Source of the DNA: an uncultured Alphaproteobacteria bacterium
GTDB lineage: Bacteria > Pseudomonadota > Alphaproteobacteria > Rhodobacterales > Rhodobacteraceae
Direction of reading: 5' to 3'
DNA length: 64,000 nucleotides
NCBI GenBank assembly: GCA_902570265.1
Contig: CACFXF010000006.1
Coordinates: 1 to 64,000 of the forward strand
Below the pieces are notes generated by a model. The model searched no databases. It saw nothing but the letters and a program-made list of their open reading frames with translations, and was not told the DNA's origin. A program made the translations under genes and the position numbers. This document shows positions 32,813 to 39,596 of the stretch, one piece after another; position 1 is the first letter of the stretch, and each line of letters starts with the position of its first letter.

Positions 32813-33712
32813 GTGCCTGATTCATTTCAAGACATTATTCATAAATTAAATGATTACTGGTCTTCAATAGGGTGTGTAATTTTACAACCTTATGACTTAG
32901 AAGTTGGTGCTGGTACTTTTCATCCTGCAACTACTTTAAGAGCTTTAGGCAAAAAACATTGGCAAGCAGCTTATGTTCAACCTTCAAGAAGACCTACTGA
33001 TGGTAGATATGGTGAAAATCCAAATCGTTTGCAGCATTTTTATCAATTTCAAGTAATTCTAAAACCTTCGCCTTATGAGATTCAAGAACTATATCTGGAT
33101 AGCTTAAGAACTATTGGAATTAATTTTAAAAATCATGATATTAGATTTGTTGAAGATGATTGGGAAAGTCCAACATTAGGTGCCTGGGGGTTGGGATGGG
33201 AGGTTTGGTGTGATGGTATGGAAGTAAGCCAATTTACATATTTTCAACAAGTAGGCGGAATTGATTGTAACCCTGTTGCAGGAGAGCTTACTTATGGATT
33301 AGAGAGAATAGCAATGTTTGTTTTGGGGATTGATAATGTGATGGACTTACCATTTAATAATCCTAAATCTTTGTATCCTAAAAAGTATGGAGATGTCTTC
33401 CAAAAAGCAGAAAGAGAATATAGTCGTTGGAATTTTGATGTAGCAAACGAAGAATTATTATTACAGCATTTTAATGACTATGAAGAAGAATGTAATAGAA
33501 TTTTATCACAACCAGAAATTGATCCACAAAATGGTAACATTATAATAATGGTTCAGCCAGCATATGATTATTGTATAAAAGCAAGTCATGTATTTAATTT
33601 GCTAGATTCTAGGGGAGTAATTTCACCTACTGAAAGACAAAATTTTATTTCTAGAGTGAGAAATTTAGCCAAAAGTTGTGCTAAAGCTTACATTAAGTCT
33701 GAAGAGGGTTAG
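32813..33712 (+). CDS. glyQ: Glycyl-tRNA synthetase alpha subunit
   Basis: This is the catalytic class II core of the two-subunit bacterial glycyl-tRNA synthetase. It has 299 residues and a GTG start at 32813 ([16 protein letters not shown]). Family landmarks are [61 protein letters not shown] and [12 protein letters not shown]. It is first in glyQ, membrane protein, glyS, with the dikinase homologue downstream. Confidence 0.96.
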
Positions 33713-33724
33713 CGTTAAATAGAG

Positions 33725-34165
33725 ATGACAGGTAAAATTACAGTAATTTTATTAATTGTGATAACTCTAATATTTGGAATAGTATTTTTCTATTTTCAAA
33801 CTTACGCATACTATTCAAAAGTTGATGCTAAAGAGCAAATAATAGTAAATAAAATACAAATCAAAGTTGAAGATTACATAGGAATAAGATCAGACGTATC
33901 TAAATTAAAATTAAGAGGATGCTTTAATATAGACCCTTCTGCTTTTAAATTTTTCTTAACAAGTATTAAAGCTTCACCTTTGTCAGCACCATTTTGGTTT
34001 GAGTGTTTTGATTATAAAGAAATTCAGTCTGATATTGATAACGGTATACTAAAAGCCTATCTCGCAGAAGAAAATGAGTATCCTGGAATTGATAGATATG
34101 TGGCTATTTCTATAAATGGTATTGGCTATGAATGGCGTCAACTAAATGAAAAATATGAGAAATAA
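33725..34165 (+). CDS. Small membrane-anchored protein between glyQ and glyS (possibly DUF6446)
   Basis: This 146-residue protein has one N-terminal membrane helix (residues 4-25, KITVILLIVITLIFGIVFFY) and a predicted periplasmic domain. Its recognisable parts are LRGCFNIDPSAFK, PLSAPFWFECFDYKEIQ and IDRYVAISINGIGYEWRQLNE. Alphaproteobacteria often have such a gene exactly between glyQ and glyS, which I recall as DUF6446, though I cannot confirm the name. It is 12 bases after glyQ and 3 before glyS. Two cysteines in the exported domain could pair. The function is unknown. Confidence 0.75.
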   Translation: MTGKITVILLIVITLIFGIVFFYFQTYAYYSKVDAKEQIIVNKIQIKVEDYIGIRSDVSKLKLRGCFNIDPSAFKFFLTSIKASPLSAPFWFECFDYKEIQSDIDNGILKAYLAEENEYPGIDRYVAISINGIGYEWRQLNEKYEK

Positions 34166-34168
34166 AAA

Positions 34169-36232
34169 ATGTCTGATTTAATTTTAGAATTTTATTCAGA
34201 AGAAATTCCTTCAAGAATGCAAAAAAAGGCCTCTATTGATTTAAAAGATATTTTTAAAAATGGTTTGGATTTAGCGGGTTTAGATTACTCTAAAATCTGT
34301 ACTTTTGTTACACCTAGAAGATTAACATTAATAGTAAAGGGTCTTTCAAATAGCTCTAATTCATATTACGAAGAAAAAAGGGGCCCTAGAGTCGGATCTC
34401 CAGAAAAAGCTATAGAAGGTTTTACTCGTTCATTAAATATCGATAAATCCTCTTTATTCATTAAAAAGGAAAAAAAGGGGGAATTCTATTTCTATAAATT
34501 CCATCAAAAAGGAAATTCTGCAAAAGAAATTATAGCTAAGATTTCTTTAGACGTTATTACAAATTTTCCCTGGAAAAAATCAATGAGATGGGGAGAAGGA
34601 AATTTAAGGTGGGTAAGGCCACTAAAATTTATTTACTGTGCATTGTTTGAAAATAATACAAGTCGTGAAATTATTGATTTGAAATTAAAAGAAATTTCTT
34701 CAGTAAATTTTACTTTAGGTCATTATATGATTTGTTCTAAAAAAATCTTTCCAAAAAATGTAAGTGATTATTTAAAAAAACTAAACGAAAATAAAGTTAT
34801 TTTAGATAGAGATGAGAGGAAGAAAATTATAGTTAATTCATATACTGCATTGTTAAAAGATGGAAACTCTTGTGTGATTGATGATGAAGATCTTGTTGAA
34901 GAAATAATAGGTTTGGTAGAATGGCCTGTAGTTTTTTTAGGATATATTGATGAAGAGTTTTTATCTCTACCAAAAGAGATTTTGCAAGTTACCATGAAAG
35001 AACATCAAAAGTTTTTATCAGTAATTAACAAAGAAACTGAAATAATTGATAAATTTATAGTAGTTGCAAATATGCTTGCAGAGGATGGAGGAGAATCCAT
35101 TATGAATGGAAATTCTAGAGTTTTGCGATCTAGATTAAAAGATGCAAAATTCTTTTTTGAAAATGATATCAAGGTTATTGAAAAGAAAGGTTTATCTAGT
35201 CTTACAAAGAATTTAAATAAAGTAACTTTTCATAATAGGATTGGAAGTCAATTAGATAGAGTGAATAATATTGAAAAACTTTCCCAAAACATCTCAAAAT
35301 TAATGGGTGTAGACAATTCAAAATGTAAGATTGCTGCCAGATTATGCAAAACTGATTTGGTTACACATGTTGTATCAGAATTCCCAGAACTACAGGGAGT
35401 AGTTGGTAAGATTTATGCAGATTACGAAGGTATTGATCAAAAGATTTCTAATTCAATTGCTGAACATTACTTACCTATAAAGCTTAATGATAAAGTACCT
35501 ACTCAAGAAATTTCGATCGTTATTGCATTGTCAGATAAAATTAATTCTCTGATTAGCTTTTGGAAAATTAAAGAAAAACCTACTGGATCAAAAGATCCAT
35601 TCGCATTGAGAAGGTCTGCAATAGGCTTAATTCGGGTACTTTTAGAAAATAAATTAGACATAAATATTGGGGAATTAATCTTTAAAGCTTTGGAAATAAG
35701 TGATGCTAATGATTTGATTAAATTCTTGGAAGAAAGATTTAGAATTTATTTATTAGAAAAAGATTTTGATCATGATTTGTTAGAATCTTGTTTGAAATTC
35801 GGCAATTTTAATAATCCTTATTTGGTTTATTTAAAAATAGAAAGCATAAAAGAATTTAAAAAATCCAATGATTTTAAAAAGTTAATGAATTCTTACAAAA
35901 GGCCTATAAATATCTTAAATTCAGAGGAAAAGAAAAATGATTTTGTTCTTTCTGACGAGCCATCAAAAGAACTTTTTGATAACAAATACGAAAAAGTACT
36001 TTTTGAGAAGTTAATTGAAGTCGAAAATGAGGTTAGTGAGTTAATTAAAAAAAAGAATTTCACATTAGCATTAACATATTTATCAACTTTTGATGATGAA
36101 ATTGAAAATTTTTTTGAAAATGTTGTTATTAATGTAGATAAAGCTAATATGAAAATTAATAGGTTAAAATTGTGTAATAAAATAAGAAAACTTATGCATT
36201 CAGTAGCATATTTTGGTCAACTAAATTTCTGA
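34169..36232 (+). CDS. glyS: Glycyl-tRNA synthetase beta subunit
   Basis: This is the tRNA-recognising subunit of bacterial glycyl-tRNA synthetase, 687 residues. It opens with LILEFYSEEIPSRMQKKA, then has TPRRLTLIVKGL, KGEFYFYKFHQKG, FPWKKSMRWGEG and EHQKFLSV. The HD-like domain includes RLKDAKFFFENDI and KIADYEG-type sequence (GKIYADYEGI). GSKDPFALRRSAIG and a C-terminal anticodon-binding domain follow. The ATG comes 3 bases after the preceding gene. Confidence 0.96.
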   Translation: MSDLILEFYSEEIPSRMQKKASIDLKDIFKNGLDLAGLDYSKICTFVTPRRLTLIVKGLSNSSNSYYEEKRGPRVGSPEKAIEGFTRSLNIDKSSLFIKKEKKGEFYFYKFHQKGNSAKEIIAKISLDVITNFPWKKSMRWGEGNLRWVRPLKFIYCALFENNTSREIIDLKLKEISSVNFTLGHYMICSKKIFPKNVSDYLKKLNENKVILDRDERKKIIVNSYTALLKDGNSCVIDDEDLVEEIIGLVEWPVVFLGYIDEEFLSLPKEILQVTMKEHQKFLSVINKETEIIDKFIVVANMLAEDGGESIMNGNSRVLRSRLKDAKFFFENDIKVIEKKGLSSLTKNLNKVTFHNRIGSQLDRVNNIEKLSQNISKLMGVDNSKCKIAARLCKTDLVTHVVSEFPELQGVVGKIYADYEGIDQKISNSIAEHYLPIKLNDKVPTQEISIVIALSDKINSLISFWKIKEKPTGSKDPFALRRSAIGLIRVLLENKLDINIGELIFKALEISDANDLIKFLEERFRIYLLEKDFDHDLLESCLKFGNFNNPYLVYLKIESIKEFKKSNDFKKLMNSYKRPINILNSEEKKNDFVLSDEPSKELFDNKYEKVLFEKLIEVENEVSELIKKKNFTLALTYLSTFDDEIENFFENVVINVDKANMKINRLKLCNKIRKLMHSVAYFGQLNF

Positions 36233-36251: not shown

Positions 36252-38831
36252 ATGAAAGAAAGCTACAAATCATTAATATCTACTTTTTCAAAACTTGATA
36301 TATCGCAAAAAAAATTTGGTGATAGATCTTCAATTTTGTCCAATTTGAGCAAGATTGGTTATCCTATTGTAGAAGGTTTTTTTATTTCTTATGATATAAT
36401 GAAACAAATAGAAATTGGACAACAAACTCCACAAATTCCTTATAAATTTTTAGAATGTGGCCCCTTTTGTTTAAGATCTAGCACAAACAAGACTGAAATA
36501 GCAGGACTTGAACCTTTTCTCTACTTAGGACTAAACAAAGAAAAAATTGACGAGTTGTCTTGTATATTTGGGGAAAAAAAATTAAGTCAAATCTATTTAA
36601 ATCATATAAAAAATTTTGGAATTAGGGTTTTTGACCTTGAGTCAGATTTTTTTGAACACACTATCCTAAAAATTTTAAAGCAAAAAAAAACAAATTCAGT
36701 AAATAATCTAGATATAAAAACTTTAAATTATTTAATAAGTGAATTTGAGGAATACTATAGGAGTAGTTTGGGTTTTGATTTTCCAGAAGACCCGTCTGAG
36801 CAAATACATTATGCTTTAAAAGCTATTATGAATGAATGGCAAAGTCCTACATCTAAAATATTACGAAATTCTCTTGGTATTCTTAACGAAGATCATATAG
36901 GTGTTATAATACAAAAAATGATTTTTAAGAATTTGAATTCTCATATAGTAGATTTAGAAATTCAATTTATTGATAGTAATACTGGTGAGGAAAAAATTAA
37001 TGGTCAATACAAAAAAGTTGGACAAAATCATACTACTGCAAAATCTTTTGAAGGTACTAATTATAAACAATTGTTATCGAAAAATATTGAGATTGGTCGA
37101 CCTAAATTCAATTTATTTTCAAATCCATTTTTTAAAAAAATTAAAGAGTTAGATAAGAAAACTTCAACGATTTACGAAAAAAAATTTAGTTACAGGTTCA
37201 TAGTAGGTGCTGAAGACCTTTTTTTAGTTGATGCTAAGAAAGTTAATTTACAAACGTCTGCAATTTTAAAAATGCACATGAATTGTGTTAAAAAGGGCAT
37301 ATTAAGTAAAGATCAGATTATTTCAAAAGTAGATCCTGATATGTTTGTTCAATCATTACATCCCCAAATAAGTCAAAATTCAGGACTTAATATTATTGGT
37401 GTAGGATTACCCGCCAGTCCAGGAGGAGTTTCAGGAAAAGTAGCATTTAGAGCTGAAGAAGCAATTAGAATGAGTTCAAAGGGAATGACTGTAATTTTGG
37501 TAAGAAGTGAAACAAGTTCAGAAGATATACGTGGAATGCATGCATCTGCCGGAGTTCTTACATTAAGAGGAGGAATGAGCAGTCATGCTGCTGTGGTAGC
37601 GCGTGGTCTTGGTAAACCCTGTGTTGTAGGAGTAACAAATCTTAGTATTAATAGTAGTTTGAATTCAATAATTACTTCAGAGGGAGAAGTCCTTAAATCT
37701 GGTGATGTTGTTACTATAGATGGATCAAATGGCCATGTTTTAAAAGGTAACGCTCATATGGTTAAACCAAAACTACCAAAATATTTTTTCGAAATTTTAG
37801 ACTGGGCCAGTGATCGTGGAAAAATATGTATAAAAGCTAATGCAGATACCACTAAGGAAGCTCAGCAAGCTAAAGGATTTAAAGTTGATGGTATTGGATT
37901 ATGTAGAACGGAGCATATGTTTTTTGAAAAAAAATCTCTGCAAATAATGCAAAAAATTCTTCTTTCTCCTAGTGACAATGATAAAATGAATGCTATTACA
38001 ATCCTTTCCAAAATACAGGAATTAGAGTTTAAAAAAATATTTAAAATTATGCGTGGTAAAACAGTAACCACTAGGTTACTTGATTTGCCAGTTCATGAAT
38101 TTTTACCAAACAGTATAAATGAATTAGAAATTTTAGCTGATGAACTTAAAATGACATTCTTACAAGTTTCGGAAAGATGCAAACAAATGGCAGAGATAAA
38201 CCCCATGTTGGGGAAAAGAGGGGTCAGATTAGGTATTTTATTACCTGAACTATATAAAATGCAAGTAAAAGCAATAATTAAAGCAAGCATAAGTGTCTAT
38301 GGAAAAAATCAAAAAGAATTTCCTCCAGAGATTATGCTACCTATGGTTTCCTCTTTCAAAGAAGTTAATTTCCTTAAAAAACTAATTGATGCCGTAGTTG
38401 CTGAAATAAATAAAGAAATTAATTTTCCTATAAATTACAAGTTAGGAGTAATGGTTGAAACACCTAGAGCTGCATTAAAAGCAGGTGAGCTGGCAATTAT
38501 AAGTTCTTTTTTAAGTTTTGGAACGAACGATTTAACTCAAATGACCTATGGGTTAAGTCGGGATGATTCTGGTACATTTATGAGGGATTACTTAGAAAAA
38601 GGTATATTCCCAGTTGATCCATTTCGTTCGTTAGATTTAGATGGTGTTGGAGAATTATTAAAGATAGCGTCTAAAAAAAGTAGAGCTGCTAATCCGTCTA
38701 TTAAAATTGGTATTTGTGGTGAACATGGTGGAGATCCAAAGTCCATAGATTTTTGTAAAAAAATTGGTTTAGATTTTGTTTCATGTTCCCCTTTTCGTGT
38801 TCCAATCGCAAGGATAGCAGCCGCTCAATAA
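36252..38831 (+). CDS. ppdK: Pyruvate phosphate dikinase homologue with eroded ATP-grasp domain
   Basis: This 859-residue homologue has the three-domain plan of PPDK, which interconverts pyruvate and PEP through a phospho-histidine. The swivelling domain is intact (GGMSSHAAVVARG, His445). The PEP/pyruvate domain keeps Arg552 in LCRTEH, Arg608 in TTRLLDLPVHEF, the Glu in VMVETPRA, the Asn in FGTNDLTQM and the Cys near 845 in VSCSPFRVP. The first 340 residues are highly divergent. The usual GTGVAFTR loop is missing (residues 225-245). The ATP-site segments corresponding to DIEFT and LQTRNGKRT read YRFIV and VDAKKVNLQT. ATP-dependent activity is therefore doubtful. The position after glyS, before a SleB hydrolase, is normal for alphaproteobacterial ppdK. 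Confidence 0.85.
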   Translation: MKESYKSLISTFSKLDISQKKFGDRSSILSNLSKIGYPIVEGFFISYDIMKQIEIGQQTPQIPYKFLECGPFCLRSSTNKTEIAGLEPFLYLGLNKEKIDELSCIFGEKKLSQIYLNHIKNFGIRVFDLESDFFEHTILKILKQKKTNSVNNLDIKTLNYLISEFEEYYRSSLGFDFPEDPSEQIHYALKAIMNEWQSPTSKILRNSLGILNEDHIGVIIQKMIFKNLNSHIVDLEIQFIDSNTGEEKINGQYKKVGQNHTTAKSFEGTNYKQLLSKNIEIGRPKFNLFSNPFFKKIKELDKKTSTIYEKKFSYRFIVGAEDLFLVDAKKVNLQTSAILKMHMNCVKKGILSKDQIISKVDPDMFVQSLHPQISQNSGLNIIGVGLPASPGGVSGKVAFRAEEAIRMSSKGMTVILVRSETSSEDIRGMHASAGVLTLRGGMSSHAAVVARGLGKPCVVGVTNLSINSSLNSIITSEGEVLKSGDVVTIDGSNGHVLKGNAHMVKPKLPKYFFEILDWASDRGKICIKANADTTKEAQQAKGFKVDGIGLCRTEHMFFEKKSLQIMQKILLSPSDNDKMNAITILSKIQELEFKKIFKIMRGKTVTTRLLDLPVHEFLPNSINELEILADELKMTFLQVSERCKQMAEINPMLGKRGVRLGILLPELYKMQVKAIIKASISVYGKNQKEFPPEIMLPMVSSFKEVNFLKKLIDAVVAEINKEINFPINYKLGVMVETPRAALKAGELAIISSFLSFGTNDLTQMTYGLSRDDSGTFMRDYLEKGIFPVDPFRSLDLDGVGELLKIASKKSRAANPSIKIGICGEHGGDPKSIDFCKKIGLDFVSCSPFRVPIARIAAAQ

Positions 38832-38948
38832 ATTTTATTATTTTGATTTTCTTATACTAAATTTTTTAGATATTTTACTTGCATGATTGCAATAGTAGCA
38901 TTATGAGCTATTCATTGTGTGGTTATTGAGATAAGAGATAGATTTTAC

Positions 38949-39596
38949 ATGAAAATATATTTTTTAATTTTTTTTAAAATCTTTTTCATATTATTTTTTA
39001 ATACTTTATATTCAGAAGAATTAAAAAATAGTATTGAAGAAAGAAAAACTGATACTTATGCATTTTTACAAGATTTTATTAACTCTGATCTGATTTTTAT
39101 ATCTTCCTTAGGCCAAAATTCTTTAAAAAATTTTTCAGGTTTTTCTGATTTGGATGAAGGAAAGTTTTCTTTTGAGACAATCGATAATTTTCCCAAACCC
39201 AGACAAACTTCTGAGATGAAATGTTTAGCAGAAGCTATTTATTTTGAAGCCAGAGGTGAAGCTCTTGAAGGACAATATGCTGTTGGAGAAGTAATTATCA
39301 ATAGAGTATTATCAAAAGATTTTCCAAATAGTGTATGTGGAGTAATTTCAGAAGGAGCTAATAGACTAAATGCTTGTCAATTTTCTTATAATTGTGATGG
39401 TAAGTTAGAAACCATAACAGAGAAAAAAATTTATGAAAGGATTTTGAAGTTATCCCAAATGTTATTAGAGCCTTCTGCTAGGTTTCTTACTAGTGGAGCA
39501 ACCTTTTATCATTCTAAGTTAGTAAGCCCTAGTTGGTCAAAGAAATTTATAAAAACTAATGAAATTGGAAATCATGTTTTTTATAAATTGCCATAG
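38949..39596 (+). CDS. SleB/CwlJ-type cell wall hydrolase, exported
   Basis: This peptidoglycan hydrolase of the Hydrolase_2 family has 215 residues from the ATG at 38949. I chose this start because it places a signal peptide first (MKIYFLIFFKIFFILFFNTL); an upstream frame start at 38919 would add ten charged residues. The catalytic domain begins MKCLAEAIYFEARGEALEGQ with the conserved Glu pair and continues VINRVLSKDFPNSVCGVISEG, NACQFSYNCDGK and GATFYHS. In alphaproteobacteria this gene type often follows ppdK. It may act in envelope remodelling at growth or division. Confidence 0.85.
   Translation: MKIYFLIFFKIFFILFFNTLYSEELKNSIEERKTDTYAFLQDFINSDLIFISSLGQNSLKNFSGFSDLDEGKFSFETIDNFPKPRQTSEMKCLAEAIYFEARGEALEGQYAVGEVIINRVLSKDFPNSVCGVISEGANRLNACQFSYNCDGKLETITEKKIYERILKLSQMLLEPSARFLTSGATFYHSKLVSPSWSKKFIKTNEIGNHVFYKLP

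What the first reader, a model, noticed from the sequence alone, without database searches (positions are those of the whole stretch)
36252..37300. Pyruvate phosphate dikinase homologue that seems to have lost its ATP site
Seen: the PEP/pyruvate and phospho-histidine domains are well kept (GGMSSHAAVV, LCRTEH, RLLDLPVHEF, VMVETPRA, FGTNDLTQM, VSCSPFRVP), but the first 340 residues are not. Known: the ATP-grasp half of PPDK carries GTGVAFTR, DIEFT and LQTRNGKRT, with acidic residues plus Gln/Arg that bind ATP. Here those segments read as a non-matching stretch at 225-245, YRFIV and VDAKKVNLQT. One normal arginine (RSS near 75) remains. Inference: the ATP/phosphate half-reaction may be lost, leaving a protein that takes phosphate from PEP only, or a regulator. 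The frame has no stops, so selection still maintains it.
Basis: partly seen in the sequence, partly recalled or inferred. Interest (0 to 1): 0.6.

Follow-up and report, generated by a model that had tools for sequence, protein, structure and literature searches.

The report
Pyruvate phosphate dikinase without ATP site
This gene is the local version of a well-known metabolic enzyme, pyruvate phosphate dikinase, that has kept the half that handles PEP and pyruvate but lost the half that uses ATP; almost the whole bacterial family to which it belongs carries the same altered form, although databases and metabolic models still treat it as the normal enzyme.

Summary
The ORF 36252-38831 (+, 859 aa) has intact phospho-histidine and PEP/pyruvate domains but no recognisable PPDK_N domain. 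Of 12 canonical ATP-half residues only R92 and Q240 remain; all 7 PEP-half residues remain. It is not a local accident. In family f1 (Rhodobacteraceae by two named members), 109 homologues outside the window's genus and 9 inside it have all lost D321, Q335 and E271. All 20 other alphaproteobacterial PPDKs sampled keep them. One f1 genome (G205) still has the canonical enzyme. The gene is the positional orthologue of PPDK (glyQ-glyS-ppdK), usually single copy. The PPDK regulator PDRP is missing from 94 of 100 f1 genomes. Pyruvate kinase is present in 99 of 100. The N-domain fold is still predicted and is under weaker purifying selection, with its own conserved residues, so this is re-tooling rather than decay. 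Published 13C work found no or weak pyruvate-to-PEP flux in roseobacters with an annotated ppdK. Most likely it is a PEP-driven histidine-phosphorylating protein with an unknown acceptor or partner. That last step is inference; no assay was run. AlphaFold's PEP-facing pose is no evidence for locking, because a canonical control gave the same pose.

The parts
36252..38831 (+). PPDK homologue lacking the ATP site, 859 aa, ATG to stop
36252..37271 (+). residues 1-340: degenerate ATP-grasp-like N-terminal domain (19% identity to canonical PPDKs, fold still predicted)
36324..36326 (+). R25, replaces Lys22 of C. symbiosum PPDK
36474..36476 (+). R75 = Arg92, kept in all g1 and in 108/109 other f1 homologues
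36849..36851 (+). T200, replaces Arg219 (one of the charged sites changed in the PPDK triple mutant 2R82)
37005..37007 (+). Q252, replaces Glu271 (Arg in 106/109 other family members)
37188..37196 (+). S313-Y314-R315, replace Asp321-x-Glu323 of the ATP site
37230..37238 (+). D327-A328-K329, replace Gln335-x-Arg337; Asp at position 335 is family-wide (9/9 g1, 107/109 f1)
37389..37751 (+). residues 380-500: swivelling phospho-histidine domain, intact; catalytic His445 at 37584-37586, Ser443 at the PDRP-target Thr position
37794..38828 (+). residues 515-859: PEP/pyruvate TIM-barrel domain with R552, R608, E736, N759, D760, C845 all kept
32813..33712 (+). glyQ, glycyl-tRNA synthetase alpha (named from sequence), conserved neighbour
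33725..34165 (+). 146-aa ORF of unknown function, conserved between glyQ and glyS across the family
34169..36232 (+). glyS, glycyl-tRNA synthetase beta (named from sequence), conserved upstream neighbour; 19 nt before the ppdK homologue
38919..39596 (+). cell-wall-hydrolase-like ORF (named from sequence), conserved downstream neighbour

Best explanation
This is the positional orthologue of pyruvate phosphate dikinase (PPDK) in which the ATP/Pi half-reaction has been dismantled and the PEP/pyruvate half kept. Shown by sequence: the ATP-site residues are lost, the phospho-His and PEP-site residues are kept, the state is family-wide and ancestral, and the gene is under purifying selection. Inferred: the protein still runs PEP + E-His <=> pyruvate + E-His~P; it cannot make or use ATP; the remodelled N-domain now binds something else, either a phosphoryl acceptor or a partner protein. 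The protein would then be a PEP-driven phosphotransferase or a sensor of the PEP/pyruvate ratio. Estimated likelihoods: loss of the ATP half-reaction in this protein about 0.93; PEP-dependent His phosphorylation retained about 0.75; acceptor or partner unknown.
For: No PPDK_N match. Only 2 of 12 canonical ATP-half residues are kept in the window protein and 2-3 in its genus, against 11-12 of 12 in 20 canonical alphaproteobacterial PPDKs; 7 of 7 PEP-half residues are kept. D321, Q335 and E271 are kept in 0 of 118 homologues. On a tree built without the N-domain the ATP-site state needs 2 changes, and the window's genus is one clade inside the lost group. Same glyQ-glyS-ppdK position as canonical PPDK in other alphaproteobacteria. 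The N-domain is constrained (dN/dS 0.10-0.33), its ATP-grasp fold is predicted (mean pLDDT 86.9; best PDB matches are PPDK, Z 48), and it carries family-specific residues: 28 of 38 positions fixed differently from canonical PPDK lie in it. PDRP is absent from 94/100 family genomes. Pyruvate kinase is present in 99/100 and a PEPCK in 9/12 genomes of the genus, so the ATP half-reaction is not needed for PEP/pyruvate traffic. Independent literature: PEP from pyruvate = 0 in D. shibae and P. gallaeciensis despite annotated ppdK (PMC2761930); weak pyruvate-to-PEP flux in R. denitrificans (PMC2749216); pyruvate carboxylase required on lactate and D-malate in C. sphaeroides (PMC12632250).
Against: No biochemical test. 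In the family core (not in this genus) Glu323 is kept in 94/109 and R135 in 96/109, so weak or altered nucleotide binding there is not excluded. The published flux results have other explanations: glucose growth in one study, low ppdK expression in another. The sequences of the published strains were not checked here. The gene can be lost: 8 of 149 family genomes lack a strong match, including one rated 100% complete. No acceptor or partner was found. The AlphaFold model places the His domain on the PEP side, but so does the model of a canonical PPDK, so that pose is not evidence.
Confidence: 0.55

Rival explanations
1. A non-phosphotransferring regulator or scaffold: PEP or pyruvate binding changes domain positions, and the N-domain signals to a partner; the His is kept mainly for structure.
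For: The N-domain is conserved with new family-specific residues; the PPDK-specific regulator PDRP is gone in 94/100 genomes; the gene is dispensable in a few genomes.
Against: All seven PEP/His catalytic residues are kept in all 9 g1 homologues and near-universally in f1 (mean 6.98 of 7), and the His-domain dN/dS is low (0.02-0.15), which argues for catalysis.
Confidence: 0.2
2. Still a dikinase with a rewired nucleotide site (for example Asp in place of Gln335 and Arg in place of Lys22), perhaps slow or using another nucleotide or phosphate donor.
For: Asp at position 335 and Arg at 22 are nearly fixed across the family (107/109 and 104/109); R92 and Q240 are kept; most family-core members keep Glu323 and R135.
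Against: In the window's genus E323, D321, R135, R337 and D280 are all replaced, and E279 in 5 of 9; no PPDK_N match; published pyruvate-to-PEP flux zero or weak in relatives.
Confidence: 0.12
3. A moonlighting PEP/pyruvate-barrel enzyme (PEP phosphatase, or a decarboxylase of oxaloacetate or a related acid) with a vestigial N-domain.
For: The C-terminal barrel is complete; its structural neighbours include pyruvate kinases, malyl-CoA lyase and citrate-lyase-like proteins.
Against: Conservation of His455 and of the whole swivelling domain is unexplained; the N-domain would be expected to be lost rather than kept with its own conserved residues.
Confidence: 0.08
4. Sequencing artefact, recent pseudogene, or misassembly.
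For: Draft genome, 81% complete.
Against: Open full-length frames in 9 genomes of the genus and in the family; dN/dS well below 1.
Confidence: 0.02

Closest known systems
Pyruvate phosphate dikinase, EC 2.7.9.1 (C. symbiosum 1KBL/1DIK, maize 1VBG; NCBIfam TIGR01828)
   Same: Three-domain architecture and length, phospho-His and PEP/pyruvate active sites, genomic position next to glyS in alphaproteobacteria; best structural match Z 48.
   Different: ATP/Pi site residues replaced; score 754.8 is below the equivalog cut-off of 843.45; no PPDK_N domain match; PDRP not found in the own genome.
C. symbiosum PPDK triple mutant R219E/E271R/S262D (PDB 2R82)
   Same: E271 is Arg in 106/109 family homologues (6/9 in the genus) and R219 is Thr/Ser in 106/109 (9/9 in the genus). 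In the mutant these charge changes leave the His domain at the PEP side (PMC5371819).
   Different: Natural, not engineered; in the window protein E271 is Gln; the effect on domain position is inferred. AlphaFold cannot test it (control).
VadK (Rv1127c, M. tuberculosis), PPDK-derived regulatory kinase (PMC13400623)
   Same: A PPDK descendant that lost one of the two half-reactions and changed role. That paper also mentions mycobacteria with full-length PPDK lacking critical kinase motifs.
   Different: Mirror image: VadK keeps the ATP half and His and lacks the PEP domain.
Enzyme I of the PTS (PtsI/PtsP)
   Same: PEP-dependent His autophosphorylation with homologous PEP barrel and His domain (Z 33 to 2HWG).
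   Different: Lacks the EI N-terminal (HPr-binding) domain; the genus has its own EI of about 760 aa in 11/12 genomes, so it is not a surrogate EI.

Membership tests
Pyruvate phosphate dikinase (EC 2.7.9.1) | PEP-utilising phospho-His domain with catalytic His and C-terminal PEP-binding barrel | tested here: met
   PF00391 79.3 bits, PF02896 252.3 bits; H445, R552, R608, E736, N759, D760, C845 kept
[quoted passage not shown]
   No PF01326 match; of these only R92 kept. The fold itself is still predicted
Pyruvate phosphate dikinase (EC 2.7.9.1) | Passes the NCBIfam TIGR01828 equivalog cut-off (843.45 bits) | tested here: not met
   754.8 bits; canonical controls 1091-1424 bits; three family-core members just fail (827-841), while two deep-branching members with a lost site pass (872, 922)
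Pyruvate phosphate dikinase (EC 2.7.9.1) | AMP + PPi dependent conversion of PEP to pyruvate + ATP + Pi (or the reverse) | not testable with these tools
   needs purified protein
Pyruvate phosphate dikinase (EC 2.7.9.1) | Common descent and position (glyQ-glyS-ppdK orthologue) | tested here: met
   synteny, tree
PTS Enzyme I | PEP-utilisers_N (HPr-binding) domain PF05524 | tested here: not met
   not among the Pfam matches of the protein; the own genome has a separate EI at G000:C41
VadK-type PPDK-derived kinase | Keeps the ATP half and His, lacks the PEP domain | tested here: not met
   opposite half kept; definition from PMC13400623

The most novel reading that the evidence does not exclude
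An unrecognised PEP-dependent phosphotransferase of the Rhodobacteraceae, evolved once from PPDK near the base of the family, that passes the phosphoryl group of PEP to a new acceptor (small molecule or protein) through a re-tooled ATP-grasp domain, and is annotated in databases as PPDK.
Probability: 0.35. Interest if true: 0.8.

Novelty: new variant of a known kind. Interest (0 to 1): 0.6.

Why it matters
Rhodobacteraceae are abundant marine and photosynthetic bacteria whose central carbon metabolism is modelled from annotation. If their 'PPDK' cannot use ATP, models that rely on it need correcting: the D. shibae model iDsh827 has the reverse PPDK reaction active in all states studied (PMC3789786), and a proposed mixotrophic CO2-fixation route runs through PPDK (cited in PMC2761930). 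It also gives a simple explanation for the missing pyruvate-to-PEP flux. A nearly universal gene with an intact PEP-phosphotransfer half and an unknown acceptor is a directly testable open question.

Tried and rejected
Split enzyme (ATP half encoded elsewhere): no PPDK_N in the own genome at E<=1 or in G151, rated 97% complete. Surrogate Enzyme I for an incomplete PTS: rejected, EI present in 11/12 genus genomes. Pseudogene or assembly error: rejected. 'Lost only in this organism': rejected. His domain locked on the PEP side, as judged from AlphaFold: rejected as evidence, because a canonical PPDK control is also placed on the PEP side (1KBL rmsd 11.4 for the window model and 11.7 for the control). 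Folate/formate link suggested by a plasmid copy (L151): no close relative found in 149 family genomes (best 58% identity), not pursued. Paper searches found no description of ATP-site loss in this family; only open-licence PMC papers were searched. Ye et al. 2001 on ATP-site mutants of PPDK was not held, so the role of these residues rests partly on general knowledge and the mutant structure titles (2DIK R337A, 1JDE K22A).

Full report
WHAT IS THERE. The finding lies in an 859-aa ORF at 36252-38831 (+), ATG start, directly after glyS in the order glyQ (32813) - 146-aa ORF (33725) - glyS (34169) - this gene - a cell-wall-hydrolase-like ORF (38919) - folB-like (39657) - gph-like (39991) - folP-like (40678) - glmM-like (41693) (gene names are mine from sequence, positions conserved in relatives by tblastn). 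Pfam finds the phospho-histidine domain and the PEP-binding domain but no PPDK_N ATP-binding domain at E<=10. NCBIfam's PPDK equivalog model scores 754.8 bits, below its cut-off of 843.45. Canonical PPDKs in the same tests score 149-211 bits for PPDK_N and 1091-1424 bits for TIGR01828.

RESIDUE MAP. phmmer aligns the protein with C. symbiosum and maize PPDK over residues 75/86-859. The numbering of K22, R92, R219, E271, D321, E323, Q335 and R337 was read off the C. symbiosum chain. In the window protein these are R25, R75, T200, Q252, S313, R315, D327 and K329. Only R92 and Q240 of twelve ATP-half positions are kept; all seven PEP-half positions are kept. Identity to 20 canonical alphaproteobacterial PPDKs is 19% for residues 1-340 but 54% and 48% for the other domains.

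NOT A LOCAL ACCIDENT. All 149 sampled genomes of the order, every one coded as family f1, have a homologue; in a second, genus-even sample of the family 141 of 149 do; 9 of 12 genomes of the window's genus do. I collected 109 family homologues outside the genus, 9 within it, and 20 from other alphaproteobacterial families. All 20 outsiders keep D321, E323, Q335, R337, E271, E279, D280, K22, R92 and R135. None of the 118 family sequences keeps D321, Q335 or E271. H455, R561, R617, E745, N768 and D769 are kept in 118 of 118, C831 in 116. Typical replacements are fixed rather than random: Q335->D in 107/109 and 9/9, E271->R in 106/109, K22->R in 104/109 and 8/9. One family genome, G205 (L109), still has the complete canonical site and scores above the PPDK cut-off. 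Family f1 is Rhodobacteraceae/Paracoccaceae by two named members with the same altered site, Pseudorhodobacter turbinis and Paracoccaceae bacterium La 6; GTDB names are withheld, so this is inference.

HISTORY. A tree on the His and PEP domains alone needs two changes of ATP-site state; one loss near the base of f1, with the canonical G205 sequence at or near the base, is the simplest reading. L109 and L112 are long branches, so their exact place is unsure. The window's genus is one clade (support 100) on a long branch among the early lineages. The loss is graded: 11.9 of 12 ATP-half residues kept in outsiders, 7 in the deepest f1 members examined (L108, L113, L137), mean 4.4 in f1, 2.6 in the window's genus. 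The PPDK regulatory kinase/phosphatase (PF03618) is present in only 6 of 100 family genomes and not found in G000 or G151. Those six are G205 plus five (G160, G163, G172, G207, G223) whose ppdK branches deep in the tree, so regulator and ATP site went in the same part of the tree. Standard bypasses exist: pyruvate kinase in 99/100, PEPCK in 9/12 genus genomes.

SELECTION. Within the genus dN/dS is 0.10-0.33 for the N-domain, 0.02-0.15 for the His domain and 0.06-0.11 for the PEP domain. In canonical PPDKs the three domains are equally conserved (71/69/70% mean pairwise identity); in f1 they are 56/67/74% and in the genus 52/80/76%. Of columns invariant in canonical PPDKs the f1 majority differs in 109 of 170 (N), 9 of 55 (His) and 22 of 167 (PEP); 28 of the 38 positions fixed for a different residue in f1 lie in the N-domain. 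That pattern suggests a changed function under constraint, not decay.

STRUCTURE. AlphaFold2 predicts the full PPDK fold with a confident N-domain (mean pLDDT 86.9, pTM 0.78). The best PDB matches are PPDKs (5jvl_C, Z 48, rmsd 3.3). The model has the swivelling domain on the PEP side, but a control model of a canonical PPDK (L078, mean pLDDT 90.1) does too, so the pose proves nothing. Separately, R219 and E271, two of the three charged sites changed in the C. symbiosum mutant R219E/E271R/S262D whose His domain rests at the PEP side (PMC5371819), are altered family-wide: E271->R in 106/109, R219->T/S in 106/109 and 9/9. This suggests, but does not show, weakened docking at the old ATP site.

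MECHANISM. Best inference: PEP phosphorylates His445, giving pyruvate; the ATP/Pi exit is closed; the N-domain binds an unknown acceptor or partner. Published physiology fits: PEP from pyruvate is 0 in D. shibae and P. gallaeciensis on glucose (PMC2761930), pyruvate-to-PEP flux is weak in R. denitrificans (PMC2749216), and C. sphaeroides needs pyruvate carboxylase on lactate and D-malate (PMC12632250). Those authors gave other explanations (inactive under the conditions, low expression), and I did not check the sequences of those strains. A trans-acting ATP half and an Enzyme I surrogate role were tested and not supported.

COMPARISON. It descends from PPDK and should work like its PEP half, but it fails the ATP-site criterion and so should not be called a PPDK enzyme. 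VadK of mycobacteria (PMC13400623) is the mirror image: ATP half kept, PEP half lost. I found no description of the family-wide loss in the open-licence literature searched, which is not proof of novelty.

Noticed in passing
L151:4069-8475 (CP031587.1, plasmid pLA6_002): A second ATP-site-less ppdK ('ppdK_2', 54% identical to a typical chromosomal copy) sits on a plasmid beside folB-like and folA genes and an NAD-type formate dehydrogenase cluster; no close relative in 149 family genomes.
   Followed up: partly
L109 (G205:C68:2600-5600): The only family genome examined with a fully canonical glyS-linked PPDK, together with the PDRP regulator; useful for dating the loss.
   Followed up: partly
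L198:1261-2466 (G000:C5) and L199:841-2457 (G151:C5): The window's genus is split in its PEPCK: some genomes, including the own one, carry a short 402-aa ATP-PEPCK-like protein with the P-loop GLSGTGKTTLS; others carry a 539-aa form.
   Followed up: partly
L201:866-2999 (G000:C39): A second, divergent 383-aa pyruvate-kinase-like ORF lies directly beside an ORF that looks like ATP sulfurylase (named from sequence).
   Followed up: no
window 33725-34165: A 146-aa ORF of unknown function between glyQ and glyS is conserved in that position in the family neighbourhoods examined and not detected in the four from other alphaproteobacterial families.
   Followed up: no
G237, G454, G458 (genomes rated 98-100% complete): These family members lack a strong match to the gene, so it can be lost.
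   Followed up: no
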